Below, piece by piece: positions 5,704 to 33,699 of a stretch of 64,000 nt of DNA. The DNA is from Phycisphaerales bacterium AB-hyl4 (GTDB taxonomy: Bacteria; Planctomycetota; Phycisphaerae; Phycisphaerales; Phycisphaeraceae), in contig JBGUBD010000012.1 in NCBI GenBank assembly GCA_041821185.1, positions 56,170-120,169 on the forward strand. Reading direction: 5' to 3'. Every line of letters begins with the position of its first letter. The stretch's first letter is position 1. Made by a program: the position numbers and the translations under genes. The notes beneath the pieces were generated by a model. That model searched no databases and was not told the DNA's origin. It saw only the letters and a list, made by a program, of their open reading frames with translations.

Positions 5704-5774
5704 AGCGGGTGACGGGAATCGAACCCGCATCATTGGCTTGGGAAGCCAACGCTCTACCATTGAGCTACACCCGC
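5704..5774 (-). tRNA. tRNA-Gly (anticodon CCC)
   Basis: Read on the minus strand: acceptor GCGGGTG pairs with CACCCGC, D-arm GCTC/GAGC, anticodon stem TTGGC/GCCAA enclosing loop TTCCCAA (anticodon CCC), T-arm GCGGG-TTCGATT-CCCGT and discriminator T. CCA is not encoded. It lies between the kinase and the start of the accessory region and could be an integration site. Confidence 0.95.
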
Positions 5775-5929: not shown

Positions 5930-6202
5930 ATGGCGAAAGCAGGCCGACGCGGCAGACCGTCTCGGCCGTATCGGACGTCGTGGGGCGAGAACGTCGAGGG
6001 GCTCTACAAGTGCCCGGACGGCCGCTGGCGCATCACTGTGACCGGCCAGACGTTCACTGAACACGACGAGCGGCGAGAGCACCACGATCTGTGGGCTCAC
6101 AACCTGATGCGGGATCAGCTGCTCGCCAACCTGAAACTGGATGAGGACATGAAGAAACGAGTGGAGGAGCGGCGGAGGCGGGCGAATGAGCCCGTTGATT
6201 GA
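5930..6202 (+). CDS. probable N-terminal fragment of a tyrosine recombinase/integrase
   Basis: 90 residues with a basic N-terminus (RRGRPSRPYRTSWGE), then GLYKCPDGRWRI and FTEHDERR. From memory this resembles the N-terminal arm of planctomycete site-specific recombinases, but that identification is tentative. The catalytic R-H-R-Y domain is absent, so if the assignment is right it is a truncated integrase. It lies 156 bases from tRNA-Gly, which is where an island integrase would be expected. Alternatively it could be a small DNA-binding/excisionase-type protein. It has a good leader (AGGAG upstream of ATG 5930). Confidence 0.45.
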   Translation: MAKAGRRGRPSRPYRTSWGENVEGLYKCPDGRWRITVTGQTFTEHDERREHHDLWAHNLMRDQLLANLKLDEDMKKRVEERRRRANEPVD

Positions 6203-8089: not shown

Positions 8090-8350
8090 ATGAACGAACC
8101 CTCCCCCACCAGCAATGGCACTCTCCGCATCCTGTTTCTCAACTCGCACGGCGGCGGCTTCGCCGACCACCTCAATGTGCCCGCCGGCACCACCATCGCG
8201 CAGCTCATCGAGCGGCAGCTGCCGCACGTGAAGGCCGACGATCTGCTGATCCGCGTCAATCGCCAGCCGGTGCAGCGCGACTACGTCCTGCAGGCCGACG
8301 ACCGCGTGTCGGCGACGCCGACGAAAATCGCCGGGGCGGTAGTTGTCTGA
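8090..8350 (+). CDS. ubiquitin-like (beta-grasp) protein, candidate conjugation modifier
   Basis: 86 residues preceded by AAGGAG 10 bases before ATG. The pattern (LRILFLNSHGG, a V-P-A-G-T-T turn, a helix TIAQLIERQLP, then DLLIRVNRQPVQ and a closing strand DRVSATPTKI) fits a beta-grasp/MoaD-ThiS-like fold. It sits at the head of an operon with E2-, JAMM- and E1-type genes, so it is likely the modifier of that pathway. The C-terminus reads KIAGAVVV rather than the classic GG. It would therefore need trimming or a variant chemistry. The fold assignment is from sequence pattern; the role is inferred from context. Confidence 0.75.
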   Translation: MNEPSPTSNGTLRILFLNSHGGGFADHLNVPAGTTIAQLIERQLPHVKADDLLIRVNRQPVQRDYVLQADDRVSATPTKIAGAVVV

Positions 8351-8422
8351 TCCCGTGGCCATGCAGCAGCAGCCGCGCTGCGCCTGCTGACGCCAATCCA
8401 ATCCTGTTCGCCCCGCATTCCG

Positions 8423-8474
8423 CCGGGGCGGTCGTGTTCGTCCTACACGACCGTCCCCGGCTCACGGGGACGGT
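8423..8474 (+). promoter_or_regulatory. two mutually exclusive hairpins (attenuator-like)
   Basis: Hairpin 1 pairs 8423-8437 with 8445-8460 (one bulged base). Hairpin 2 pairs 8450-8458 with 8466-8474 and is followed by CTCCTTTT. The 3' arm of hairpin 1 contains the 5' arm of hairpin 2, so only one can form. They lie between the ubiquitin-like gene and the sigma-like gene and could set the ratio of modifier to downstream enzymes. Confidence 0.5.
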
Positions 8475-8501
8475 CTCCTTTTACTCGAAGGAGCGTCCAC
8501 C

Positions 8502-9119
8502 GTGACTGCCTCAACCACCACGCCCGTTTCGCCATCCGAAGACCACGCCCTGTTCCTGTCGGTGATGCCGGTGATCTGCGCGTTGGCGCGCCGGCGCTTC
8601 GCCAATCTGCCCCTTGCCCTTCGCGATGACGCCGTGGCCGAGGCGGTCGCCACCGGTTTTCTCAGCTATTTGTCGCTGAGGCGGCGCGGCCGCATCGAGC
8701 AGGTCGCCACAGCCGGCTTCGTCCGCAACGCCGTGCGCGCTGTCGCCGGGGGTCGGCGCGTCGGCAGCAGCCAGGCCGGTATGGACGTGATGTCGCGCCT
8801 GGGACGTCGACGCCACGGCCGTTGCGTGGCCAGCCTCGACGGTATCGGCGACGACGAGGATGCGAGTCGAGCCAACTGGCTGCACGAAGCAGTGGCCGAT
8901 CGCCGCACGGCCGTCCCCGAGCAGGTCGCGGTGCGCATTGATGGTGGCCGCTGGCTGACCTCGCTTTCCAATCGCGACCGGCAGCTGGTCCAGGCGCTGG
9001 CCGCCGGGGAGAAGGCCTGCCACGTTGCCCGCCGCTTTGCGATCAGCCCCGGCCGCTTGAGCCAGCTTCGCCAGGCGTGGTCCCGACAGTGGCAGCAGTG
9101 CGTGGGCATCGCCGCATAA
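8502..9119 (+). CDS. sigma-factor-like helix-turn-helix protein
   Basis: 205 residues; GTG start with AAGGAG 7 bases upstream. The N-terminal part (ALARRRFANLPLALRDDAVAEAV and following) looks like a degenerate sigma region 2 helix bundle. The C-terminal ~40 residues (LSNRDRQLVQALAAGE, then HVARRFAISPGRLSQLRQAW) look like a sigma region 4 HTH. It may be a diverged sigma factor or a DNA-binding regulator encoded within the conjugation operon. I cannot tell whether it still binds RNA polymerase. Confidence 0.55.
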   Translation: MTASTTTPVSPSEDHALFLSVMPVICALARRRFANLPLALRDDAVAEAVATGFLSYLSLRRRGRIEQVATAGFVRNAVRAVAGGRRVGSSQAGMDVMSRLGRRRHGRCVASLDGIGDDEDASRANWLHEAVADRRTAVPEQVAVRIDGGRWLTSLSNRDRQLVQALAAGEKACHVARRFAISPGRLSQLRQAWSRQWQQCVGIAA

Positions 9120-9190
9120 ACGGCCAGTCTCGCCCGACCGCCCTGCTTCCAGTCGACCGTCCTTAATTACATGCATGAAGGAGCACACCG

Positions 9191-10300
9191 ATGGAGGTTC
9201 ACCTGCGACAGCGGTGGCGGGCGGCGCAGCGGATCATCGAACAGCTCACCGTCCTGCATCATCGGCGTCAGCACGAGCTGGACGAGCGGCTTGCTTATGC
9301 AGGCCAGCGCCTCGATGGCCTGCGGTCGCTCAGCCGCAAGCTGGCCCGTGCCCGCCAGCACGGGCTGCATGGGGCGCGACGCCGCGTCCAGCAGCAACTG
9401 CCCGTCACCGTGAACGAGCTGATGCACCTGCTCGGTGATGTGTCGTCGGTATTGAGCCGCAGCGCCGCCCCACCACCGATCCCGACAGTGCGACAACTGC
9501 TCGATGCGCTCGAGCAGCTCGATGACGAGTTCGGCGAGCTGACCCTCGACGACAAGTGCCGGTACATCTCGGTGACCACGGAGCCGATCGCCCTCGAAGG
9601 GGTGGAACTGGGCCGGTTCGAGATCCGGCTGTACCTCGATGATCTGTCGAGCCTGAGCGGCCCGCGTCCCTATGAAGTGCTCGCGCTGGATCCCAACCCG
9701 CCGGCGGGCGAAGACCACGTCACGCACCCCCACGTCTCGGATAACCACCTGTGCGAAGGCGAAGGCGCGTCGGCGATCCGCTTCGCCTTGGAACGCGGCG
9801 CATTAGGCGAGTTTTTCCTGCTCGTGCACGCAGCGCTGAACACCTACAACGCCGAATCGCCCTACGTGTCGCTGGATGCCTGGCATGGCGTGGCCTGTGC
9901 CGACTGCGGCGACCGCATCGACAGCGACGACGCGTACGCCTGTCACCGCTGCGGCGACGAGCTGTGCGGCAGTTGTGCCGGGCGCTGCGAATGCTGCGAT
10001 GAAGCGTTCTGCCCGAACTGCGGCGGCACGTGTGCCCAGTGCCACGAGCCCGCCTGCGAAAAGTGCCTGACCACCTGCCCCGGCTGCTGGCGAAGCATCT
10101 GCGCCGACTGCCTGGAACACGATGACCTGTGCCCGGCCTGCCGGGCCGAACAAGACGACGAGGAGTTACCCGATGAAGAACAAGACCCACTGCCGGCTGA
10201 AGGCGCACCGACGCCTGCCGGCTCCACCGCAGTCTTCCCCGCCGCGGCGGACGGCCCGCCGTCCCCGGCGCCACCGTCACCGGCGATCATCCCGACGTAA
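9191..10300 (+). CDS. E2-like (UBC fold) domain fused to RING-like cysteine-rich domain
   Basis: 369 residues, AAGGAG upstream. Residues 1-90 are helical and charged (coiled-coil-like). Residues ~115-232 match the E2 pattern: strands, then HPHV (179-182), and a candidate catalytic Cys188 in NHLCEGEG, about where E2 enzymes place theirs. Residues 236-318 contain about 21 cysteines in CxxC pairs (CADC, CHRC, CPNC, CAQC, CPGC, CPAC), consistent with tandem RING-like/treble-clef zinc sites. An E2 with its own E3-like module on one chain would pass a thioester-linked modifier to a target. The tail (320-369) is acidic then Pro/Ala-rich. Domain calls are from motif spacing; no search was run. Confidence 0.75.
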   Translation: MEVHLRQRWRAAQRIIEQLTVLHHRRQHELDERLAYAGQRLDGLRSLSRKLARARQHGLHGARRRVQQQLPVTVNELMHLLGDVSSVLSRSAAPPPIPTVRQLLDALEQLDDEFGELTLDDKCRYISVTTEPIALEGVELGRFEIRLYLDDLSSLSGPRPYEVLALDPNPPAGEDHVTHPHVSDNHLCEGEGASAIRFALERGALGEFFLLVHAALNTYNAESPYVSLDAWHGVACADCGDRIDSDDAYACHRCGDELCGSCAGRCECCDEAFCPNCGGTCAQCHEPACEKCLTTCPGCWRSICADCLEHDDLCPACRAEQDDEELPDEEQDPLPAEGAPTPAGSTAVFPAAADGPPSPAPPSPAIIPT

Positions 10301-10961
10301 GCCGGCGCTGCGTTTCACACCTTACGCCTGGAGCAAGTGGCGCTGCCTGCGCGACCTCGGCGAGACCGAGATCGCCTGTTTCGGCATCAGCAGCGAGCAT
10401 GACCCGCTGCTGATCGTTGACCTGGCAATGGTGAAGCAGACCGCCACGACCGTGACCGTCGCCTTCGACGATGAAGCCGTGGCCGACTACTTCGAGCAGC
10501 AACTCGACGCCGGCCTGTCGGTGGAGCGGTTCTTCCGCGTGTGGCTGCACACGCATCCCGGTCATAGCGCCGAGCCCAGCACCACCGACGAGGAGACGTT
10601 TACCCGCGTCTTCGGCGATTGCCACTGGGCGGTGATGGGCATCCTGGCTCGCGGGGGTCAGCGCTACGCCCGCCTGCGGTTCGGCGTGGGGCCCGGCGGT
10701 GAAGGCCGGATCCCCGTGAAGATCGACTTTGATGTCGACTTTCCCGCGGCGGATCGCCAGGCATGGCAGGCCGAGTACGCGCGGTGCGTGCAGCGTGTCC
10801 CGGATACGCTGGAGCCGGTGGGGTTCGATCCGCTATGGCTGGATGACCCGGACTGGCTCGAACGCTTCGTCATTCAGGACGAAGCGCTGGCGCTGATCGA
10901 GGCGCGGGCACTCGATCAACCGCGCACCGTTTCCGAGGGAGACCCGGCCGATGACATCTGA
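10173..10961 (+). CDS. JAMM/JAB-family metalloprotease, candidate deconjugase or modifier-processing enzyme
   Basis: Complete JAMM signature: an upstream Glu (GETEIACFG, E66), then H126-T-H128, seven residues, S136, two residues, D139. This is the zinc site of JAB/MPN+ deubiquitinases. In bacterial ubiquitin-like operons such enzymes trim the modifier tail or remove it from targets. ATG 10173 is preceded by GAGGAG at a good distance, which places the start inside the previous gene (128-base overlap). Residues ~10-43 are Arg/Pro-rich because they share DNA with the E2 gene's Pro/Ala tail. The catalytic domain would be kept if translation began a little later. Confidence 0.85.
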   Translation: MKNKTHCRLKAHRRLPAPPQSSPPRRTARRPRRHRHRRSSRRKPALRFTPYAWSKWRCLRDLGETEIACFGISSEHDPLLIVDLAMVKQTATTVTVAFDDEAVADYFEQQLDAGLSVERFFRVWLHTHPGHSAEPSTTDEETFTRVFGDCHWAVMGILARGGQRYARLRFGVGPGGEGRIPVKIDFDVDFPAADRQAWQAEYARCVQRVPDTLEPVGFDPLWLDDPDWLERFVIQDEALALIEARALDQPRTVSEGDPADDI

Positions 10962-11379
10962 TCCGCCGCCGGACCCGGGTCGGCACGATGCGGACGATTC
11001 GCCCGAGGTCAGTCGCGCCCAGATGATCGAAGACGGCCTGCTCATTGACCTCACCGACTGGGCCCGCCCCGTCGGCATCCCGATCCCCGTCGCCTGCACC
11101 GATCTTGTGTGGCTGACCTGGATCGCCCCACCGCCGGGCACCCGCGAAGTGGGCCAGAGCGAGCGGGGCCGGGGCCATGCGATCCTGCGCCGGCTCGCTC
11201 ATGTGATCCGCCGTCATGCCGACACGCCGCTGACGCGCATGCCCTTCAAGGTGCTGCTGCTCGCTTCGCCGCAGGTCGAGCGTCTGGCCGAGCTGGTGGC
11301 GCACGGCCATCTCGGCGATCCGCCGCAACGCGACCCGGTCATCACCCTTCAGTTGCCAGACGAACCGCAGCGCTGGTGA
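10951..11379 (+). CDS. DUF6573-family protein
   Basis: 142 residues; overlaps the end of the JAMM gene by 11 bases, so translational coupling is likely. After a variable N-terminus comes QMIEDGLLIDLTDWARPVGI, VACTDLVWLTW, a middle helix (ILRRLAHVIRRHA) and a C-terminal MPFKVLLLA...DPVITLQLP. I recognise this as the DUF6573 pattern found in mobile elements. No function is known. Its place between JAMM and E1 genes suggests a link with the same system, but that is inference. Confidence 0.65.
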   Translation: MTSDPPPDPGRHDADDSPEVSRAQMIEDGLLIDLTDWARPVGIPIPVACTDLVWLTWIAPPPGTREVGQSERGRGHAILRRLAHVIRRHADTPLTRMPFKVLLLASPQVERLAELVAHGHLGDPPQRDPVITLQLPDEPQRW

Positions 11380-11435
11380 CGCAAACGCGCCGGGCTTCGC
11401 CCGTTCAATCACCCCAACCCAAGGAGAACTTTCCC

Positions 11436-12131
11436 ATGGCAACCATTACCCCCAAGACCACTGCGCCCGCAACGGACCAACCTGACGACCGTGACCTGCG
11501 TCAACGCGAGCTGGTGCCGCCCGAAGCGCTGGCCGCCTGCCGCTGCACCATCATTGGCGTCGGAGCGATCGGCCGACAGGTCGCCCTTCAGCTGGCGGCG
11601 CTGGGCGTGGCTCACCTGCAGCTGGTCGATCCGGATCACGTCGAGCCGGTGAACCTCGCGGCGCAGGGCTACCGCGAAGTCGACGTCATGCAGCAGAAGG
11701 TGAACGCCACGGCCGCACTGTGCCGGCAGCTGCACAGCCGCCTGAGCATCGAGGCCGTGTCCGGGCGGTTCCGCCGCTCGCTGCCGGTGGAGCCGGTGGT
11801 GTTCGCGTGCGTCGATGCGATCGCCACCCGCCGGCAGGTGTACGAAGCGGTGCGGGGGAATGCGCGGCTGCTGGTCGACGGCCGCATGCACGGCGAGGTG
11901 ATCCGCGTGCTGGCCGCCGAACTGCCGGACCATCACGACCGCTACCGCGGCACGCTGTTCAATCCCGATCAGACGTACGCCGGCAGCTGTACGAGTCGGT
12001 CGACGATCTACGCCGCCAATCTCGCCGCAGCGCTGATGGTGGCGCAGCTGGCGCGTCACCTGCGCTGCCAGCCGGTCGAGCCGGACCAGACCCTGAACCT
12101 CTTTGCTGGCGAACTGACGACGACGCGCTGA
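11436..12131 (+). CDS. ThiF/E1-like adenylyltransferase
   Basis: 231 residues; AAGGAG then ATG 11436. The Rossmann nucleotide-binding loop GVGAIG is at 41-46, followed by the acidic turn LVDPDHVEPVNL (65-74) that is diagnostic of E1/ThiF/MoeB enzymes. There is a second conserved zone FACVDAIATR (123-132). C185 in YAGSCTSRSTIYAANL is the best candidate for the catalytic or zinc-free Cys. The protein is shorter than MoeB and lacks the C-terminal rhodanese and the large E1 inserts. It would adenylate the C-terminus of the ubiquitin-like protein at 8090 and hand it to the E2 at 9191. Confidence 0.85.
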   Translation: MATITPKTTAPATDQPDDRDLRQRELVPPEALAACRCTIIGVGAIGRQVALQLAALGVAHLQLVDPDHVEPVNLAAQGYREVDVMQQKVNATAALCRQLHSRLSIEAVSGRFRRSLPVEPVVFACVDAIATRRQVYEAVRGNARLLVDGRMHGEVIRVLAAELPDHHDRYRGTLFNPDQTYAGSCTSRSTIYAANLAAALMVAQLARHLRCQPVEPDQTLNLFAGELTTTR

Positions 12132-12255
12132 ATCGAAGCCAACGCACTGGCTGTCGCTCGACTCACGCCCCGCTTTCCCAATCGTGGCGTGGCGCGGGCG
12201 GTGGCCTGCGTCATGCCGGTTTCCTGTTCACCCTCCGATTCAAGGAGTGTTTGTC

Positions 12256-12456
12256 ATGACCGTCATCCCCGCTTCCCGCCTGCAACCGTCTGATCTGCGC
12301 CGGCTCGGCTGTGACCTCGTCGACCAGGTGCGCGACGAGCATCAAGTGTGCCACCACCCGGTCGACCGTTCACTGGCCGTGCATGGCGAGCAGCTGTCCG
12401 ACGAAGACCTCGCCGCCCTCGACGCCGCCACGAACAGCGAGCATGTCGCGTCGTAG
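12256..12456 (+). CDS. small hypothetical protein of the conjugation operon
   Basis: 66 residues with AAGGAG upstream of ATG 12256. It contains LQPSDLRRLGCDLVDQVRDE and LSDEDLAALDA. I do not recognise a family. The two HC-type residues (CHH) could bind metal but this is weak. It follows E1 and precedes a hairpin. Confidence 0.5.
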   Translation: MTVIPASRLQPSDLRRLGCDLVDQVRDEHQVCHHPVDRSLAVHGEQLSDEDLAALDAATNSEHVAS

Positions 12457-12491
12457 GCCCGGCTGATCAAGCATCGATTGCATGAATCGTC

Positions 12492-12535
12492 GCGGGCTCT
12501 GCCCCACCGCCACGGGAGGCGGTGGGGCAACCCGC
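12492..12535 (+). terminator. strong hairpin in the leader of the DUF1257 gene
   Basis: Perfect 11-bp stem 12501-12511 / 12518-12528 (GCCCCACCGCC and its complement) with outer GCGGG/CCCGC pairing, followed by TTTCG. It may be a partial terminator, or a processing site separating the E1 half of the operon from the Ycf46/Ycf35-like half. Confidence 0.5.
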
Positions 12536-12590
12536 TTTCGATGCGGTGTGTACCGGAAGAAATTTTGCGCCTGATGGAGACCCATCGACT

Positions 12591-12962
12591 ATGTCCCACA
12601 TCGTGACCATCAAGACACAGGTGCGTGATCCTGCGGCCCTGGCCGCGGCGTGCCGGAGGCTGAACCTCGCCGAGCCGGTCCGCGGAAACGCGAAGCTCTT
12701 CGCCAGCGAGGCCGAGGGATTGATCTTGCATCTTCCTGACTGGCGTTACCCCGTCGTCGCCCAGCCACAGACGGGGGAACTGAAGTACGACAACTACAAC
12801 GGCGCATGGGGGGAGCAAGCCCAGCTCGATCGCCTGCTTCAGGCCTACGCCGTGGAAAAGGCGCGGCTCGAAGCGCGGAAAGCCGGCCACAGCGTGCTGG
12901 AGCAGCCGCTGCCCGATGGCTCGATCCGCCTGCAGATCCAAATGGGAGGAGGTTCTGGATGA
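12591..12962 (+). CDS. DUF1257 (Ycf35-like) protein
   Basis: 123 residues starting MSHIVTIKTQVRDPAAL, the classic opening of DUF1257/Ycf35, with the conserved core LHLPDWRYPVV, YDNYNGAWG, LDRLLQAYAVEKAR and a final LPDGSIRLQI. Ycf35 homologues occur in plastids, cyanobacteria and mobile elements without an established function. DUF1257, DUF2997 and a Ycf46-like AAA ATPase recur as neighbours, as they do here. The stop overlaps the next start by ATGA. Confidence 0.85.
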   Translation: MSHIVTIKTQVRDPAALAAACRRLNLAEPVRGNAKLFASEAEGLILHLPDWRYPVVAQPQTGELKYDNYNGAWGEQAQLDRLLQAYAVEKARLEARKAGHSVLEQPLPDGSIRLQIQMGGGSG

Positions 12963-13168
12963 CCTCAGCTTCGCGCATCATCGAGATCACCGTGAGTTCC
13001 ACCGGTCAGACGAAGCTGGAAACCCGCGGCTTTGCCGGCCCTTCGTGCCGGGACGCCAGCCGCAACATCGAGCGGGCGCTGGGCCTGGTCGAATCGGATC
13101 AGCCCACCGCAGAGATGCACCAGAGCCAGCATCACTCGCAACAGATCGACCAGCAAAGCAGCACATAA
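12959..13168 (+). CDS. DUF2997-family small protein
   Basis: 69 residues. Starts at the ATGA overlap with DUF1257 and has GGGAGGAGG just upstream. The core IIEITVSSTGQTKLETRGF, then GPSC and an E-x-ALG helix, is the DUF2997 pattern. The C-terminal 20 residues are His/Gln-rich. Likely a partner of DUF1257; its molecular role is unknown. Confidence 0.75.
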   Translation: MTSASRIIEITVSSTGQTKLETRGFAGPSCRDASRNIERALGLVESDQPTAEMHQSQHHSQQIDQQSST

Positions 13169-13229
13169 GCTTCCGCCGCTTGTCTCGTTCGGCTTCTATC
13201 CATCCGCATCTATATAAAGGAATACCATC

Positions 13230-14759
13230 ATGACGCTCATCGAAAAGCTGCGCGAGTACATCGCCGCGGCCTTCACCGGGCTCTGGATCCAGACCCACGA
13301 ACACGAGGACGCCCTGGCCGAGATCGCCCGACTCTGCAAAGACAACCAATGGACATTGGCCCACTGGGACATCGACCGCGGCCTGCAGGTGCCCGGCGGC
13401 ACGGCAGATTCGGAAGATCCCGGCAACACGATCTCTGGCAGCGCCGCCGGCGATCCGTTGGCCGCCATTCGAGCGCTGGGCACCTTGTCTTCCCCGGCGC
13501 AGCCGGAAACCTCCACACTGCTGGTGATGAGCAACCTGCATCGCCTGCTGGGCAGTGCCGAGGTCGTGCAGGCGCTGGCGCACCAGCTGGTGCAGGGCAA
13601 GCAGCAGCGCACGTTCATCGTGGTGCTCGCGCCGGTGGTCAACATCCCGCTGGAGCTGGAGAAGCTGTTTGTTGTGATCGAACACGACCTGCCGGGGCGC
13701 GAGCAGCTCAAACAGATTGCCGAGGGCGTGGCCACCGAGGCAGGCGAACTGCCCGAAGGCGATGACCTCGATCGCGTGCTCGACGCCGCCGCCGGGCTCA
13801 CGCGCCTGGAAGCCGAAGGCGCGTTCGCCCTCTCGCTCGTGCGAGAAGGCAAGGTCGAGCCCGAGGCGATCTGGGAACTCAAGACGCAGACCCTGAAAAA
13901 GAGCGGCCTGCTCAACCTGCACCGGGGACACGAGCGTTTCGCCGATCTCGGTGGGCTGACGGCGCTCAAGCAGTTCTGTCTCAAGGCGCTGAACCGTGCC
14001 TCGGACGCGACGGTGCGGGCGCGGGGGCTGCTGCTGCTGGGCATCCCGGGCAGTGGGAAAAGTGCGTTTGCCAAAGCCCTCGGCCGCGAAACCGGCCGCC
14101 CCACGCTCACGCTGGACATCGGCGCACTGATGGGCTCGCTGGTCGGGCAAACGGAAGGGAATTTACGGCGGGCGCTGGCGACGCTGGACGCCATGTCCCC
14201 GTGCATCGCCTTTGCGGACGAGATCGAAAAAGCGCTCGCCGGCACCGCCAGCAGCGGGCAGACCGACTCGGGCGTCTCCGCCCGCCTGTTCGGCTCGCTG
14301 CTGACCTGGCTGAATGACCATACCAGTGACGTGTTCTTCATCGCCACGTGCAATGACATCTCCAAGCTGCCGCCGGAGTTTTCGCGCAGCGAACGCTTCG
14401 ATGGCATCTTCTTCCTCGACCTGCCCGGCCGCGAACAGAAGGATGCGATCTGGCACCTCTACCAGACGATGTTCGAGTTGTCGGAGCACGAACGGCCTGA
14501 GGATACGAACTGGACCGGAGCGGAGATCAAGGCCTGTTGCCGGCTCGCCCGATTGCTCGACATGCCGCTGCATGAAGCCGCCGAGCATGTCGTGCCCGTG
14601 GCGGTGACGGCGCACGAGAACGTCCAGCAGTTGCGCAGCTGGGCGGCCGGGCGCTGCCTCGATGCCGAGCAGTCGGGGATCTACCAGGTGCAGCGCACGC
14701 AACGTTCGGCTTCGACGAAACGATCCAGCCGGCGCGTCGCCCGACCCAGCGACAACTGA
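13230..14759 (+). CDS. Ycf46-like AAA ATPase
   Basis: 509 residues. The N-terminal ~230 residues match the Ycf46 N-domain (L-IQTHE-x-E, HWDIDRGL, LLVMSNLHRLL, then VLAPVVNIPLELEKLFVVIEHDLP). The AAA module has Walker A GIPGSGKS (271-278) and Walker B AFADEIEKAL (D330/E331). It also has a sensor-like ATCND and an arginine-finger region SERFDGIFFLDLPGR. Such ATPases remodel or unfold protein partners. In this operon it could act on modified proteins or on the DUF1257/DUF2997 pair. The last ~25 residues are Ser/Arg-rich. Confidence 0.85.
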   Translation: MTLIEKLREYIAAAFTGLWIQTHEHEDALAEIARLCKDNQWTLAHWDIDRGLQVPGGTADSEDPGNTISGSAAGDPLAAIRALGTLSSPAQPETSTLLVMSNLHRLLGSAEVVQALAHQLVQGKQQRTFIVVLAPVVNIPLELEKLFVVIEHDLPGREQLKQIAEGVATEAGELPEGDDLDRVLDAAAGLTRLEAEGAFALSLVREGKVEPEAIWELKTQTLKKSGLLNLHRGHERFADLGGLTALKQFCLKALNRASDATVRARGLLLLGIPGSGKSAFAKALGRETGRPTLTLDIGALMGSLVGQTEGNLRRALATLDAMSPCIAFADEIEKALAGTASSGQTDSGVSARLFGSLLTWLNDHTSDVFFIATCNDISKLPPEFSRSERFDGIFFLDLPGREQKDAIWHLYQTMFELSEHERPEDTNWTGAEIKACCRLARLLDMPLHEAAEHVVPVAVTAHENVQQLRSWAAGRCLDAEQSGIYQVQRTQRSASTKRSSRRVARPSDN

Positions 14760-14833
14760 CGGATTCACGCTTCGCGTGGGCAGGCATTCGTCCTGTCTTT
14801 CCCATTCACCACGAACATCAAGGAGAATCGACC

Positions 14834-15865
14834 ATGACCACACTGGCCGTCGGCAACGGTACGCGCGCCGCGGCGCGTTCACCAGCGAATAGCGCCCCTG
14901 CCGCTACGGACAATCAACCCGGCGCGCACTCCGGACCATCCCACGAGCTCCGCCATGCCTTCACCGCCGTGCGTCTGAGCCTGCGCTGGCTGGGCGTGCG
15001 CAAAACGCTCAGCGGCGATCAGAAACAGCAGGCCGCCGATCCGTTCGGCGCGGAGGGCCAGTACCTCAGCGCCGCAAAAAAACTGCTGGACACCAAGCAC
15101 CCGGCCTACAAGGCGGTCACCGCCGTGCGCGGCCGGGCCGTGAGCTACTGGAAAGGCACGAGCGTGCCGTATCCCGAGCCGGGGCTGCGGCTGATCCGGC
15201 GCAGTGACATCGAACGGTTCAACCAGCAGATGAGGCAGCTGCGCGAAGAGCTCAACGAATCGGTGACGGCGCTCGACCGCGCCTATGGCGAACTGCGTGA
15301 GCATGCCAAAGATCGCCTCGGTCGGTTGTATGACCCAGGCGACTATCCGGCCTCGCTCGCCGGCCTGTTCGCCATTGAATGGGACTTCCCCAGCGTCGAG
15401 CCGCCAAGCTATCTCCAGCAGCTGAACCCCGAGCTGTTCGAGCAGGAGCGCCAGCGCGTCGCGGCCCGTTTCGACGAAGCGGTGCAGCTGGCTGAGCAGG
15501 CGTTCACCGAAGAATTCGGCAAACTGGTCAACCATCTCACCGAGCGGTTGGAAGGCGACGCCGACGGAAAACCGAAGATCTTTCGCGACTCGGCAGTGGG
15601 CAACCTGCACACGTTCTTCGACCGCTTCCGCCAGCTCAATGTCCACTCGAACGAGCAGCTCGATCAACTCGTCGAGCAGGCCCAGCAGGTGGTGCGCGGC
15701 GTGGCCCCGAATCGGCTGCGCACCAGCGAGCCGCTGCGCCAGCGCGTGGCGAAGCAGTTGCAGCAGGTGCAGGGTTCGCTGGAGGATTTGCTGGTGGATC
15801 GGCCGCGCCGGCGCATCCTGCGGCCCGGCGGGTCGGCGGCGTCCTCGGCGAAGGAGGAGCCATGA
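14834..15865 (+). CDS. coiled-coil protein, DUF3150-like
   Basis: 343 residues; AAGGAG upstream. After a disordered N-terminus, residues ~45-120 (LRWLGVRKTLSGDQ, LSAAKKLLDTKHPAYKAV, then GRAVSYWKGTSVPYPEPGLRLI) are followed by long helices rich in Glu/Gln/Arg. The layout recalls DUF3150 proteins of phages and plasmids, which occur beside AAA ATPases; the assignment is tentative. It directly follows the Ycf46-like gene and overlaps the next start by ATGA. Confidence 0.5.
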   Translation: MTTLAVGNGTRAAARSPANSAPAATDNQPGAHSGPSHELRHAFTAVRLSLRWLGVRKTLSGDQKQQAADPFGAEGQYLSAAKKLLDTKHPAYKAVTAVRGRAVSYWKGTSVPYPEPGLRLIRRSDIERFNQQMRQLREELNESVTALDRAYGELREHAKDRLGRLYDPGDYPASLAGLFAIEWDFPSVEPPSYLQQLNPELFEQERQRVAARFDEAVQLAEQAFTEEFGKLVNHLTERLEGDADGKPKIFRDSAVGNLHTFFDRFRQLNVHSNEQLDQLVEQAQQVVRGVAPNRLRTSEPLRQRVAKQLQQVQGSLEDLLVDRPRRRILRPGGSAASSAKEEP

Positions 15866-16140
15866 AACAACTCACCCTGATCATTGGCCCCGGCGGCGCG
15901 GTAACCACGCTCTACGACGAGCGACTCGACCTGCACCGGCTCGGTTCGATGCAGGTCCGCCGCGCCGGGCACGTGGAACCCGTCGACGTCGCCCGACCGG
16001 GCGCGCCGACGGGGTGGCGCGTCAGCCTCGCGCCGGTGAAGGGGCCGACGTTCGGCCCCTTTGCCAGCCGCAGCGCGGCGCTGGCGGCCGAACGCGGCTG
16101 GCTGGAGCGCCACCTGCCCGAGCTGGCTGCCGACACGTAG
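15862..16140 (+). CDS. small conserved-looking hypothetical protein
   Basis: 92 residues; AAGGAGG precedes an ATGA-overlap start. The sequence has beta-rich repeats (LIIGPGGAVTTLYDERLDL, RRAGHVEPV) and a C-terminal helix (SAALAAERGWLERHLPEL). I do not recognise the family; small proteins of this kind occur on planctomycete mobile regions. It is probably cotranscribed with its neighbours. Confidence 0.6.
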   Translation: MKQLTLIIGPGGAVTTLYDERLDLHRLGSMQVRRAGHVEPVDVARPGAPTGWRVSLAPVKGPTFGPFASRSAALAAERGWLERHLPELAADT

Positions 16141-16209
16141 CCCGCCGCAGTTCGGCGTCACGTTCCCCTATCGAATCGTTCAACCCTTCCGTTCAAGGAG
16201 ATCTCACCC

Positions 16210-16503
16210 ATGCAACAATTCTTCCGATCGCTGATGTCCCTGCTCGTGGGACTGGCCCTGTGCCTGTTCGGCCTGTTCCAGGGCGTGCAGCTGCTGCCGA
16301 CCGCCCCCGTGTGGCAGACGGTGCTGCTTGCCGCCCCGCACCTGGCCGGCGTGTTGCTGTTTGGCCTGTGCCTGATCGCGGTGGTCGTCGGCCTGGTGAT
16401 GCTCGTCCGCAGTGCCCGCACGCTCTGGATGAGTGGCGTGCGAGGCCATCGCCATCACGAACCGGCGCTGCCCTACGGGCACGAGCCCGATCACTGGCAG
16501 TAA
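16210..16503 (+). CDS. small inner-membrane protein, two transmembrane helices
   Basis: 97 residues; AAGGAG before ATG 16210. Hydrophobic spans at ~10-35 (LVGLALCLFGLFQGVQLL) and ~40-65 (VLLAAPHLAGVLLFGLCLIA). A His-rich tail follows (RGHRHHEPALPYGHEPDH). First of three membrane-associated genes at the operon end. Confidence 0.6.
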   Translation: MQQFFRSLMSLLVGLALCLFGLFQGVQLLPTAPVWQTVLLAAPHLAGVLLFGLCLIAVVVGLVMLVRSARTLWMSGVRGHRHHEPALPYGHEPDHWQ

Positions 16504-16559
16504 ATCAGGGTCTGACTTCGACTCTGCTTCAACTACTACTGACCCAACAAGGAAGGCTT

Positions 16560-17018
16560 ATGCAGATGATTGTCACCGCCATCATCCTGGTGCTCGTGAT
16601 CCTGCTGGTGCTCACGCTCGTTCGCTGCGATGTGGACCGGGCCGTGGAGCAGGAACGCGACGCCACCGCCGCCATGCCCATCGAAGTGCAACTCCCGGAA
16701 CACCCGCCGGAACAAACCCCGGAAGACTCCCCGGAAGACCCCCCGGAGCAACCCCCTCATGATCCGACTGACCTTGATCGCCCTGCTGGCAGTGATCGTG
16801 CTGGCGATGGCGATCCTGCTTTACTGGCAATGGCTCGAACGGCAACGCCCCGTGACCGCTGCGTGGATCACCCTCGAACAGCTTCAGCAGGCCGCCGAAC
16901 TGGTGACGCTCAAGGTGCCCTACCAGCAGCTCGTCGAAACCCGCGTGGCCGGTTACAGCGGCTCCGTGCGCTGCGTCGTGCTCGCCGTCGGCGAAGCCTG
17001 GGTCGGGACCGACCTTGA
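16560..17018 (+). CDS. single-pass membrane protein with Pro/Glu-rich segment; 3' part overlaps next gene
   Basis: Start ATG 16560 (or 16566). One N-terminal transmembrane helix (IVTAIILVLVILLVLTLV), then an acidic Pro-rich stretch (repeats like PEHPPEQ, PEDSPED, PEDPPEQ). Past about residue 68 the frame runs 260 bases into the DUF4230-like gene, and the residues become Arg-rich and non-coding in look. A stop (TGA 16760-16762) sits in the frame one base away, where an ATGA overlap would be expected. A one-base indel in the preceding C-runs, or a sequencing error, would explain this. Confidence 0.45.
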   Translation: MQMIVTAIILVLVILLVLTLVRCDVDRAVEQERDATAAMPIEVQLPEHPPEQTPEDSPEDPPEQPPHDPTDLDRPAGSDRAGDGDPALLAMARTATPRDRCVDHPRTASAGRRTGDAQGALPAARRNPRGRLQRLRALRRARRRRSLGRDRP

Positions 17019-17340
17019 GCAGGCGCGTTGGGAAACCGATCCGATCACCGGCACCGTCACGCTCACGCTCGCCCAGCCGCGGGTGCTCAGCAGCCACCTC
17101 GACCATGACCGCTCCCGCGTGGTGCTCACCGCCCGCCGCGGTGTGTGGCTGATCCTGCCCGGCGAAGCGGGCGAGCCGCAGGTGATCGAGCAGGCGCTGC
17201 GCGACGCCCAGCAGCAGCTTGCCGCGTCGGCGGCGTCAGAGGAACACATAGAAGCAGCGCGGCAGCAGGCGGAGACGGTACTGAGTGAGCAACTGGGCAT
17301 GCCGCAGACAAGCAATGTTGTGATTCAGTGGCGGCCGTAA
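16759..17340 (+). CDS. DUF4230-family membrane-anchored protein
   Basis: 193 residues starting MIRLTLIALLAVIVLAMAIL, one N-terminal transmembrane helix. The soluble part has LEQLQQAAELVTLKVPYQQLVE, a turn GEAWVGTDLEQ, TGTVTLTLAQPRVLS and a helical C-terminus ending QTSNVVIQW. This is the DUF4230 pattern (strand-rich, late helix with QAxxxL), function unknown. It closes the operon and is followed by a hairpin. Confidence 0.65.
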   Translation: MIRLTLIALLAVIVLAMAILLYWQWLERQRPVTAAWITLEQLQQAAELVTLKVPYQQLVETRVAGYSGSVRCVVLAVGEAWVGTDLEQARWETDPITGTVTLTLAQPRVLSSHLDHDRSRVVLTARRGVWLILPGEAGEPQVIEQALRDAQQQLAASAASEEHIEAARQQAETVLSEQLGMPQTSNVVIQWRP

Positions 17341-32384: not shown

Positions 32385-32649
32385 TCGCGTGTTAAAAGCG
32401 CGACCTGGTTCGAGCCCTGTAGAGGGGTCGAGCGCAACGAAATGCAGGTCCTGCGTCGGTGGGTTGCGCTTAGCGGCCTGTGACGAACATGACGAACTTG
32501 AGAACTTTTTTGGCCGCTCAAAGTCACGGAGGACTGGCTTTGGCCACGGGTGGTGCCGATGCCTCTCCTGTCGCCGTCATGCCCGCTCCCGGCGGTGTTC
32601 GAAAACTATGTCACCCGCCATAGGGACGCAAGAGAGGCGATTATACCCG
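32241..32649. other. leader and left end of the integrase-core element
   Basis: Contains two similar segments (CACTTTTTTGAGGCGGCC at about 32368 and, inverted, GGCCGCTCAAA at about 32510). The last ~75 bases align with the sequence before the decayed copy at 62622. No gene visible. The left boundary of the element is probably near 32241, where the RES toxin breaks off. Confidence 0.45.
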
Positions 32650-33699
32650 ATGCCCAAACTGTTCCATCCGCTCTTGAAGATGATCGCTCACGCCACGCAT
32701 CGCGACCTGGCGGCGCAGGTGCAGTACCTCAAGGTTGAGAACGAGATCCTGCGGAGCAAGCGGCCCAAGCGGATCACGGTCACGCCGGCGGAGCGGTCGC
32801 GGCTGGTCAAGTTCGGAAAGAAGGTGGGCAGCGCCATCCGGGAGTTGATCACCATCGTCACGCCGCGAACGTTTGCCCGGTGGGTCAGTGGTGGCAACAG
32901 CAAGCCGGCGGCGACGAGGCGCAAGCCCGGCCGGCCGCAGACGCCGGAGGAGATCCGCCAGATCATCCTGCGCATCGCCGAGGAAAGTGGCTTCGGCTAC
33001 ACCCGCATCCTTGGCGAACTCAAGAAGCTGGGCATCCACAGCGTGGGGCGCACCACCGTACGCAAGATTCTGATCGAGGCAGGACACGATCCCGGCCCCA
33101 CCCGTGGCGAAGGCACATGGGATGAGTTTCTCAAAATTCACGCCAAGACCTTGTGGGCCACCGACTTCCTGAGCAAGAAGGTCTGGACGATCGGCGGGCT
33201 GGTCGACTACTACATGGTGTTCTTCATCAACATCGAGACGCGGCGCGTGATCATGAGCACCGCCATCGCGCACCCGGCCAACGACTGGGTGACGCAGCAG
33301 GCGCGCAACTTCGTCATGGAGGCCGAGGACCAGGGGCTGGACGTGGGGCACCTGATCCATGATTGCGACACCAAGTACACTGAGCGGTTCGACCGGGTGT
33401 TCGAGTCAGATGGTGTGGAAGTGCGCCGCGTCGGGCCGGCTCAACCGAACATGAACGCGTTCGCGGAACGGTTCGTGCAGTCCATCCAGCAGGAAGCGCT
33501 GGATCACTTCGTCGTGTTAGGGGAAAAACACCTGAACCACATTGTGAGCGAGTACGTTACTCATTATCACGAAGAACGGCCACACCAAGCCTTGGGCAAC
33601 GCACCGCCGGTGGAGCTGAAGCTGGCACAGTATGGAGAGGTGGTGTGTCGGGAGCGGCTGGGCGGGCTGCTGCGCCACTACCACCGTCAAGCCGCCTGA
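32650..33699 (+). CDS. integrase-core (rve) transposase, IS481/IS3-like
   Basis: 349 residues from ATG 32650 (MPKLFHPLLKMI), chosen because the decayed copy at 62622 begins with the same residues. Helical N-terminus, HTH-like segment with RKPGRPQTPEEIRQIILRIA, then the DDE core: LWATDFLSKKVWT, HDCDTKYTERFDRVF, and the glutamate zone NAFAERFVQSIQQEALDHFV. C-terminus HEERPHQALGN is typical of IS481/IS3 transposases. Appears intact. The ends of the element are not resolved. Confidence 0.85.
   Translation: MPKLFHPLLKMIAHATHRDLAAQVQYLKVENEILRSKRPKRITVTPAERSRLVKFGKKVGSAIRELITIVTPRTFARWVSGGNSKPAATRRKPGRPQTPEEIRQIILRIAEESGFGYTRILGELKKLGIHSVGRTTVRKILIEAGHDPGPTRGEGTWDEFLKIHAKTLWATDFLSKKVWTIGGLVDYYMVFFINIETRRVIMSTAIAHPANDWVTQQARNFVMEAEDQGLDVGHLIHDCDTKYTERFDRVFESDGVEVRRVGPAQPNMNAFAERFVQSIQQEALDHFVVLGEKHLNHIVSEYVTHYHEERPHQALGNAPPVELKLAQYGEVVCRERLGGLLRHYHRQAA

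What the first reader, a model, noticed from the sequence alone, without database searches (positions are those of the whole stretch)
8090..17340. A compact bacterial ubiquitin-like conjugation operon
One transcriptional unit encodes a beta-grasp modifier (8090), an E2-like domain with candidate Cys188 (9191), a complete JAMM metalloprotease (10173) and a ThiF/E1 (11436). It runs on to DUF6573, DUF1257, DUF2997, a Ycf46-like AAA ATPase and membrane genes. E1-E2-JAMM-Ubl gene sets in bacteria are known from comparative genomics, but this combination, with a sigma-like HTH and Ycf35/Ycf46 partners in the same operon, is not one I know to be characterised. Roles are inferred from motifs and order.
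Basis: partly seen in the sequence, partly recalled or inferred. Interest (0 to 1): 0.95.

Follow-up and report, generated by a model that had tools for sequence, protein, structure and literature searches.

The report
Phage-shared ubiquitin-like protein-tagging gene cassette
A planctomycete bacterium carries a small ubiquitin-like protein-tagging kit (tag, two loading enzymes and a tag remover) whose relatives lie in other planctomycetes, often near DNA-mobility genes, and in large tailed phages, so bacterial viruses appear to encode their own version of ubiquitin chemistry.

Summary
Window 8090-12131 encodes a beta-grasp modifier (Ubl), a UBC-like E2 (HPH...Cys188) fused to a 20-cysteine tail, a JAMM protease, DUF6573 and a ThiF-type E1. 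DUF1257, DUF2997, a Cdc48-like AAA ATPase and two partner genes follow. The Ubl is predicted beta-grasp; motif and profile support a UBC E2, the fold search only weakly. Gene order is conserved: Ubl-E2-JAB-E1 is complete in 31 of 31 planctomycete loci with enough flank, the AAA module beside it in 15 of 32. The AAA/DUF1257/DUF2997 genes also occur without the Ubl set in cultured phages. Most likely this is a reversible Ubl-conjugation machine shared by phages and mobile DNA: JAB trims behind a conserved Gly, and fast-changing N-terminal E2 helices choose partners. Targets and benefit are unknown. It is neither PRTRC nor Bil by the tests run. One transcript and a role for the HTH gene are unsupported.

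The parts
8090..8350 (+). Ubl: beta-grasp modifier, 86 aa, ending KIAGAVVV
   Evidence: AF2 pLDDT 81; Foldseek/VIA hits SUMO, ubiquitin, MoaD, TtuB; G82 and A83 invariant in 21 of 21 rows
8449..8475 (+). terminator-like hairpin between Ubl and HTH gene (consensus match only)
8502..9119 (+). HTH (weak FixJ/sigma-like) protein; lineage-specific, not part of the conserved cassette
   Evidence: NF006900 E 4e-4; relatives only in window and G000 contig C6
9191..10300 (+). E2: N-terminal helical hairpin (aa 1-91), UBC-like domain (about 95-220) with HPH...Cys188, tail with 20 conserved Cys
   Evidence: AF2 pLDDT 86; weak Foldseek UBC rows; motif survey; profile match to eukaryotic E2s; 20 tail Cys invariant in 22 rows
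10173..10961 (+). JAB/JAMM metalloprotease, overlaps the end of the E2 gene
   Evidence: HxHx7Sx2D with upstream Glu; Prok-JAB matched at E 0.1 or better by 15 of 15 members; nearest solved relatives Rpn11, E 0.0014
10951..11379 (+). DUF6573 protein, between JAB and E1 in 3 loci
   Evidence: Pfam 28.1 bits, cut-off 27; L009 and L010
11436..12131 (+). E1 (ThiF family) with GxGAxGR and invariant Cys185
   Evidence: Pfam ThiF 7e-25; invariant columns in 19 rows
12185..12218 (+). terminator-like hairpin after E1 (consensus match only)
12256..12456 (+). small protein of unknown function, found in 3 loci
12591..12962 (+). DUF1257 (Ycf35-like)
   Evidence: 17.2 bits, below cut-off; family in 14 loci; viral relative 51.3 bits
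12959..13168 (+). DUF2997
   Evidence: 57.9 bits; 15 loci
13230..14759 (+). AAA ATPase with Cdc48-like AAA domain (Ycf46 likeness of the N-terminal part is recalled)
   Evidence: phrog_8638 E 7e-80 over residues 3-494; PDB Cdc48/p97
14834..15865 (+). DUF3150-related helical protein (by link to the viral member)
   Evidence: HMM match to L074 member E 4e-11, which hits DUF3150 at 69 bits; 16 loci
15862..16140 (+). small conserved protein of module A
   Evidence: 18 loci; viral L074 E 2e-7
16210..17340 (+). three small membrane-type genes, the last with DUF4230; not conserved with the cassette
   Evidence: DUF4230 57.5 bits; 2-3 loci

Best explanation
This is a complete, reversible ubiquitin-like conjugation cassette of a family for which no library model reached cut-off on the Ubl, E2 or JAB, shared between planctomycete chromosomes (partly on recombinase-bearing DNA) and tailed phages. 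Proposed steps: the JAB protease trims the Ubl precursor behind the invariant Gly of its K-I-x-G-A end; the ThiF-type E1 adenylates that end; the Ubl passes to E2 Cys188; the cysteine-rich zinc-type tail fused to the E2 acts as a built-in E3-like or docking part; the fast-changing N-terminal helices of the E2 choose partners; JAB also removes the tag. The neighbouring AAA/DUF3150/DUF1257/DUF2997 module probably acts on tagged or partner proteins, as an unfoldase. Shown here: genes, motifs, the predicted Ubl fold, conserved order, purifying selection and distribution. Inferred: every biochemical step, metal binding and role of the tail, the AAA link. Unknown: the target and the benefit; most likely it serves the element or phage that carries it.
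For: Core complete in 31 of 31 chromosomal loci with enough flank. HPH..C signature in 42 of 44 chromosomal and 47 of 57 viral E2 ORFs. JAMM in 37 of 38 chromosomal JABs; the miss has ambiguous bases. Ubl ends K-[IVM]-x-G-A in 40 of 40 chromosomal rows, two of them the same place, tails of 1 to about 50 aa. UBC profile (56 rows) against four eukaryotic E2s: score 33.5, probability 71.5%, HPH/Cys aligned with HPN/Cys; at most 13.6 in 30 column shuffles, 10.9 reversed. Beta-grasp fold. JAB nearest to Rpn11, E1 to PaaA/ThiF/UBA7, AAA to Cdc48. Virus records: 52 loci, four core genes in 39; terminase in 19 of 49 records, 6 of 6 ORFs tested confirmed. N-helical E2 part median 25% identity against 46% (UBC) and 38% (tail) in 210 pairs of 21 loci.
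Against: No biochemistry. Foldseek UBC hits are weak (best E 0.065, prob 0.85) and the VIA rows cover the N-terminal helices. The full-length E2 profile against eukaryotic E2s scores 27.5, probability 10%. The UBC profile finds no E2 among PDB sequences; Pfam UQ_con is reached by 2 of 56 members at best E 0.01. The E1 is a minimal ThiF type, which also serves sulfur-carrier chemistry. The AAA module is beside the core in only 15 of 32 loci. 10 of 57 viral E2 ORFs lack the motif, and several viral E2s have no CxxC tail at all (for example L117, L119, L125, L126, L130), so the tail is not universal. No recombinase was found in the window's stretch.
Confidence: 0.75

Rival explanations
1. An anti-phage defence system of the Bil/Bub kind, carried on islands and by phages against competing phages.
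For: Ubl/E1/E2/JAB gene sets are known defence systems (Bil, PMC11354881 passages; that Bil is antiviral and Bub exists is recalled). Several copies per genome. E1 has PADLOC E1-E2 matches up to 50 bits (E 6e-14) and BilD 23 bits, JAB up to 16 bits, AAA an IetA match of 61 bits.
Against: No PADLOC family matches Ubl, E2, DUF6573, DUF1257 or DUF2997 at E 0.1. Much E1 diversity is in virus records, 19 of 49 with terminase, and in L072 and L074 the cassette sits among phage replication or tail genes. The AAA matches a phage family end to end. Phages can carry defence systems, so this is not decisive.
Confidence: 0.2
2. A phage/element takeover or counter-defence device: the Ubl tags host or rival proteins so that the AAA module can pull them apart or inactivate them.
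For: Presence in virus contigs with the AAA gene (17 of 52 loci); planctomycete gene order in virus record L093 with a terminase on the contig; AAA, DUF1257 and DUF2997 genes without the Ubl set in the fetched stretches of cultured phages RHph_I4 and SM1.
Against: No target known; 35 of 52 viral loci show no AAA gene within the fetched stretch, which is often cut by a contig end; no infection data.
Confidence: 0.3
3. A sulfur-carrier pathway (thiocarboxylate donor) rather than protein conjugation.
Against: A UBC-like E2 with a conserved Cys and a JAMM protease travel with it; no sulfurtransferase was recognised among the conserved neighbour clusters that I inspected.
Confidence: 0.07
4. A diverged member of the PRTRC/class 6d systems.
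For: Same four-part gene set; one of 56 E2 members hits Prok-E2_D at E 0.03.
Against: E1 reaches 29 of the 144.75 bits required by PRTRC_ThiF; no PRTRC model among the NCBIfam families listed for Ubl and E2 members; class 6d E2s lack the classical His, these keep an HP motif.
Confidence: 0.1

Closest known systems
Iyer et al. 2006 class 6d operons (Ubl, JAB, E1, E2, helical protein; equal to PRTRC by my recall)
   Same: same four component types; Ubl with a conserved C-terminal Gly (PMC1779556, one section part and passages read)
   Different: E2 here keeps HPH...Cys and in chromosomal copies has a Cys-rich tail; DUF1257/DUF2997/AAA module; PRTRC cut-offs not reached
Bil (BilABCD) conjugation system
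   Same: Ubl + E2 + JAMM + E1; JAMM exposes the Gly of the Ubl (review PMC11354881, passages)
   Different: one Ubl domain instead of two; E1 of 231 aa, too short for two halves; different E2 motif; BilD match only 23 bits
CBASS Cap2/Cap3
   Same: E1, E2 and JAB chemistry; conjugation through a C-terminal Gly or Ala (PMC10097602, passages)
   Different: E1 and E2 separate here, a true Ubl, no nucleotidyltransferase in the cassette
Phage AAA/DUF1257/DUF2997 genes (Rhizobium phage RHph_I4, Pseudomonas phage SM1)
   Same: AAA homologous over its length (RHph_I4) followed within one or two genes by DUF1257 and DUF2997
   Different: no Ubl, E2, JAB or E1 match in the fetched stretches
Eukaryotic and archaeal Ub-Rpn11-Cdc48 systems
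   Same: nearest solved relatives of Ubl, JAB and AAA are of these kinds
   Different: bacterial and viral, minimal E1, E2 fused to a Cys-rich tail; no proteasome gene was seen in the cassette

Membership tests
beta-grasp / Ubl | beta-grasp fold | tested here: met
beta-grasp / Ubl | conserved C-terminal Gly | tested here: met
   G82-A83 invariant in 21 rows; whether it is activated is not testable here
UBC/E2 | HP(x) motif followed by catalytic-type Cys | tested here: met
   86 distinct domains with HPH..C; 12 ORFs without (several are fragments), 6 dropped as duplicate or short, of 104
UBC/E2 | UBC fold | tested here: inconclusive
   UBC chains at Foldseek ranks 3, 4, 5, 8, 11, 12 but E 0.065 or worse; VIA list filled by another domain; UBC-domain profile match to E2s above all controls
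JAMM/JAB | Glu plus HxHx7Sx2D | tested here: met
   53 of 54 viral JABs fit HxHx7Sx2D (41 by strict pattern, 12 of the 13 others read from the letters)
E1/ThiF | ThiF Pfam cut-off, GxGxxG, catalytic-type Cys | tested here: met
   88 bits of 28.1; C185 and the glycines invariant in 19 rows; a stricter pattern held in 27 of 36 chromosomal rows
PRTRC (class 6d) | E1 reaches PRTRC_ThiF cut-off | tested here: not met
   29 of 144.75 bits
PRTRC (class 6d) | other PRTRC models matched by Ubl or E2 | tested here: not met
   no PRTRC model in the family lists for 21 Ubl and 22 E2 members
Bil | two-domain Ubl and two-half E1 | tested here: not met
   Ubl 86 aa, E1 231 aa; criteria from PMC11354881 passages
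Ycf46 AAA family | full-length family match | tested here: inconclusive
   no Ycf46 model appeared in any library answer; full-length match to phrog_8638; the likeness is recalled
protein conjugation in cells | covalent conjugates, removed by JAMM | not testable with these tools
   needs bench work

The most novel reading that the evidence does not exclude
Tailed phages encode a full ubiquitin-like pathway of their own, with maturation, E1, E2 (often with a built-in Cys-rich E3-like tail), deconjugation and a Cdc48-like unfoldase, and use it during infection to tag and remodel host, rival or virion proteins; planctomycete chromosomes carry captured versions, several per genome with different E2 recognition domains.
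Probability: 0.3. Interest if true: 0.92.

Novelty: new variant of a known kind. Interest (0 to 1): 0.74.

Why it matters
The bacterial ubiquitin-like systems I could read about serve defence. Here the same chemistry recurs in large virus contigs and planctomycete DNA, with a Cdc48-like ATPase and a JAMM protease whose nearest solved relatives are Rpn11. If active, it would be a virus-borne ubiquitin-like system and a tractable minimal model of a Ubl-conjugation-unfoldase axis. It also gives a testable setting for DUF1257, DUF2997, DUF3150 and DUF6573.

Tried and rejected
Tried without result: plasmid collection with E1 and JAB, and phage collection with the window E1: no match at 1e-5; the more distant viral E1 of L074 did match 83 phage records at 1e-3. 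PHROGs with window Ubl, E2, JAB: nothing at E 0.1. PDB sequence search with the UBC profile: 2 chains, neither an E2. VIA on the E2 model: the 50 rows shown cover the N-terminal helices, no UBC chain listed; this is no evidence against the fold. BFVD search of the E2 model: 8 hits at E <= 0.001, low TM. Tail-sheath family in 49 virus records: 1 match, 0 over the cut-off. Flanking direct repeats as att sites: only short chance matches.

Considered and rejected: that bacterial copies are prophages. The terminase profile matched somewhere in 17 of 17 of those genomes, many hits weak, but no listed place lies beside a cassette; the nearest on the same contig is a weak hit (E 6e-5) about 20 kb from the cassette in G052. 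In genomes with many contigs distance could not be judged. That crAss001 gp76-79 and Xanthomonas phage PhiXhv-12 belong to this family: only the E1 aligns well, the rest is weak, so they stay leads. Four of 18 genome hits (G085, G108, G178, G422; E 9e-11 to 7e-7) were not counted; that search scored at most 5 candidates a genome. Two E2 hits of G268 were not taken further.

Print: in the rows shown by the PMC searches (several lists were capped) I saw no title or abstract start that describes this cassette or a phage-encoded Ubl system of this kind. Most subscription papers are outside this library; the 2024 Bub/Bil papers and the 2011 RING/treble-clef survey that I recall were not read. Priority is not established.
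Full report
Observation. The window lies in contig C12 of a 4.57 Mb genome. All listed genes are present on the + strand: Ubl 8090-8350, HTH 8502-9119, E2 9191-10300, JAB 10173-10961, DUF6573 10951-11379, E1 11436-12131, a small gene, DUF1257 12591-12962, DUF2997 12959-13168, AAA 13230-14759, a DUF3150-related gene 14834-15865, a small gene 15862-16140 and three membrane-type genes to 17340. E1, AAA, DUF2997 and DUF6573 pass their Pfam cut-offs; Prok-JAB (22.1 of 25 bits) and DUF1257 (17.2 of 22.2) do not.

Conservation in planctomycetes. A whole-genome search with the E2 profile hit 18 of 392 sampled genomes of the phylum at E <= 1e-6; 14 are strong (E below 1e-60), four weak and not counted. 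G288 holds five copies. One scan of named genomes gave 21 loci, 21 of 21 with planctomycete titles. After dropping four duplicate places and two remnants, 41 loci with an E2 remain. Of the 31 with more than 0.9 kb upstream and 3 kb downstream, 31 have Ubl, E2, JAB and E1. Three or more genes of the module DUF1257-DUF2997-AAA-14834-15862 are beside it in 15 of 32 loci with at least 7 kb upstream, plus L044 with 5.8 kb; in those relatives the module precedes the Ubl, in the window it follows the E1. DUF6573 between JAB and E1 is seen only in the window, L009 and L010. In seven pairs of loci (45 gene-pair rows, 5 with saturated dS) dN/dS is 0.035 to 0.29. L041 and L044, from genomes of two genera, have cassette proteins 91-99% identical, which suggests recent transfer but was not compared with the rest of the genomes.

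Mobility. A large serine recombinase or tyrosine integrase cluster member lies in the fetched stretch of 16 of 41 loci (counted; stretches vary in length), none in the window; 5 of 5 representatives tested were confirmed by Pfam. A DUF2958-type gene precedes the Ubl in 5 loci (one of one tested confirmed). The window's own genome has two remnants: on C6, the HTH, small and membrane genes remain at 85-94% DNA identity while three gaps remove nearly all of the Ubl, most of E2 through E1, and the DUF1257-to-15862 block; on C4 only the first part of the E2 remains.

Viruses. Scans of IMG/VR with the E2 gave 2 loci, with a 3-row E1 alignment 1, with a 19-row E1 alignment 52. With L104 replaced by L073 of the same contig, of 52 loci E1 is found in 52, JAB 51, E2 49, Ubl 40, all four in 39; AAA in 17, the 14834 family in 14, DUF2997 5, 15862 5, DUF1257 1. 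Near-copies (L087/L088, L091/L092) are counted apart. DUF1257 of L074, the same contig as L097, was missed by that profile but is found by Pfam at 51 bits. L093 has DUF1257-DUF2997-AAA-14834-15862-Ubl-E2-JAB-E1, the planctomycete order. A terminase large subunit profile matches 19 of 49 records tested; 6 of 6 ORFs scanned with PHROGs are terminases, one of them on L093's contig. In L072 the E1 is followed by exonuclease, NinB-like, DnaB-like and primase genes; in L074 a tail-fibre RNA ligase lies about 1 kb upstream of the Ubl. Many records are fragments, so absences mean little; 30 of 49 records gave no terminase match.

Module A in cultured phages. The L074 ATPase matches 101 phage records at E <= 1e-20, 36 of them over at least 80% of its length. 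Rhizobium phage RHph_I4 has AAA, one other gene, DUF1257 and DUF2997; Pseudomonas phage SM1 has AAA, two other genes, then DUF1257- and DUF2997-type genes by profile. Neither stretch matched the Ubl, E2, JAB or E1 profiles. So the two modules are separable.

Relation. A quick E1 tree of 55 viral and 36 chromosomal rows needs 5 label changes (2 forced by starred branches; shuffles mean 28), with 31 open forks. Planctomycete rows fall among viral rows, with L093, L099, L073 and L120 near them. There is no outgroup, so direction is open, and the two groups were sampled with different queries.

Mechanism. The Ubl ends in K-I-x-G-A plus a tail of variable length in 40 of 40 chromosomal rows; in phages it often ends one or two residues after the Gly. 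That fits trimming by JAB, as BilC does for BilA (PMC11354881, passages), or use of Gly/Ala ends as in CBASS cGAS (PMC10097602, passages). Within the E2, the N-terminal helices change fastest (median identity 25% against 46% UBC and 38% tail over 210 pairs of 21 loci; in L047/L050, 24% against 66% and 62%), as expected for a recognition part, though weak constraint would look alike. Conjugation, the E3-like role of the tail and the AAA link are inference.

Known systems. The parts list equals class 6d of Iyer et al. 2006 (PMC1779556, one section part and passages), but PRTRC models are not reached and the E2 differs. It is not Bil by the features tested (single Ubl, short E1). In the rows shown by my PMC searches I saw no description of it; that library lacks most subscription papers. 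I rate it a new variant of a known kind; a phage-run Ubl pathway would go further.

Noticed in passing
L079 235-4645 (crAss001 gp76-79) and L077 1778-5654 (Xanthomonas phage PhiXhv-12): A ThiF/E1 sits beside a JAMM-like metalloprotease (crAss001) or a large protein with an HPH...C.G stretch and Cys-rich end plus a small protein ending in GG (PhiXhv-12): possible more distant Ubl cassettes in cultured phages.
   Followed up: partly
L073 7030-7896; L113, L122; L087, L088; L102, L109, L112: Extra parts: L073 has a second E2-like ORF without the HPH..Cys motif; L113 and L122 have two motif-bearing E2 ORFs; L087 and L088 a separate Cys-rich ORF; L102, L109 and L112 a second JAB-E1 set.
   Followed up: partly
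L036, L041, L044, L046, L047, L048, L050, L059 (Ubl C-termini): In these loci the Ubl carries a tail of about 24-35 residues with a shared WEPDN-like stretch after the Gly-Ala.
   Followed up: no
L008 7599-11926 (G000 contig C6): A decayed copy whose three gaps remove the conserved cassette genes and leave the local HTH, small and membrane genes.
   Followed up: partly
L032 and L033 (same genome): AAA proteins are 98% identical but the DUF1257 proteins compared only 57%; L033 has extra DUF1257 ORFs.
   Followed up: no
L045 (G314 contig C26): E2 match contains a TGA and part of the tail is in a separate ORF: possible pseudogene.
   Followed up: no
window 5704-5774 and 5930-6202: tRNA-Gly(ccc) with a small ORF beside it; stretches similar to both are at G000 contig C6 61500-61851. 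No integrase was shown at this end.
   Followed up: partly
window 32389-33699 and 62693 onward: Transposase-like ORF (recognised by eye) and a second partial copy of its N-terminal part.
   Followed up: no
G422 contigs C60, C65, C153: Three weak E2-profile matches (E 7e-8 to 4e-7) spanning the UBC and tail regions in long ORFs: possibly a divergent relative.
   Followed up: no
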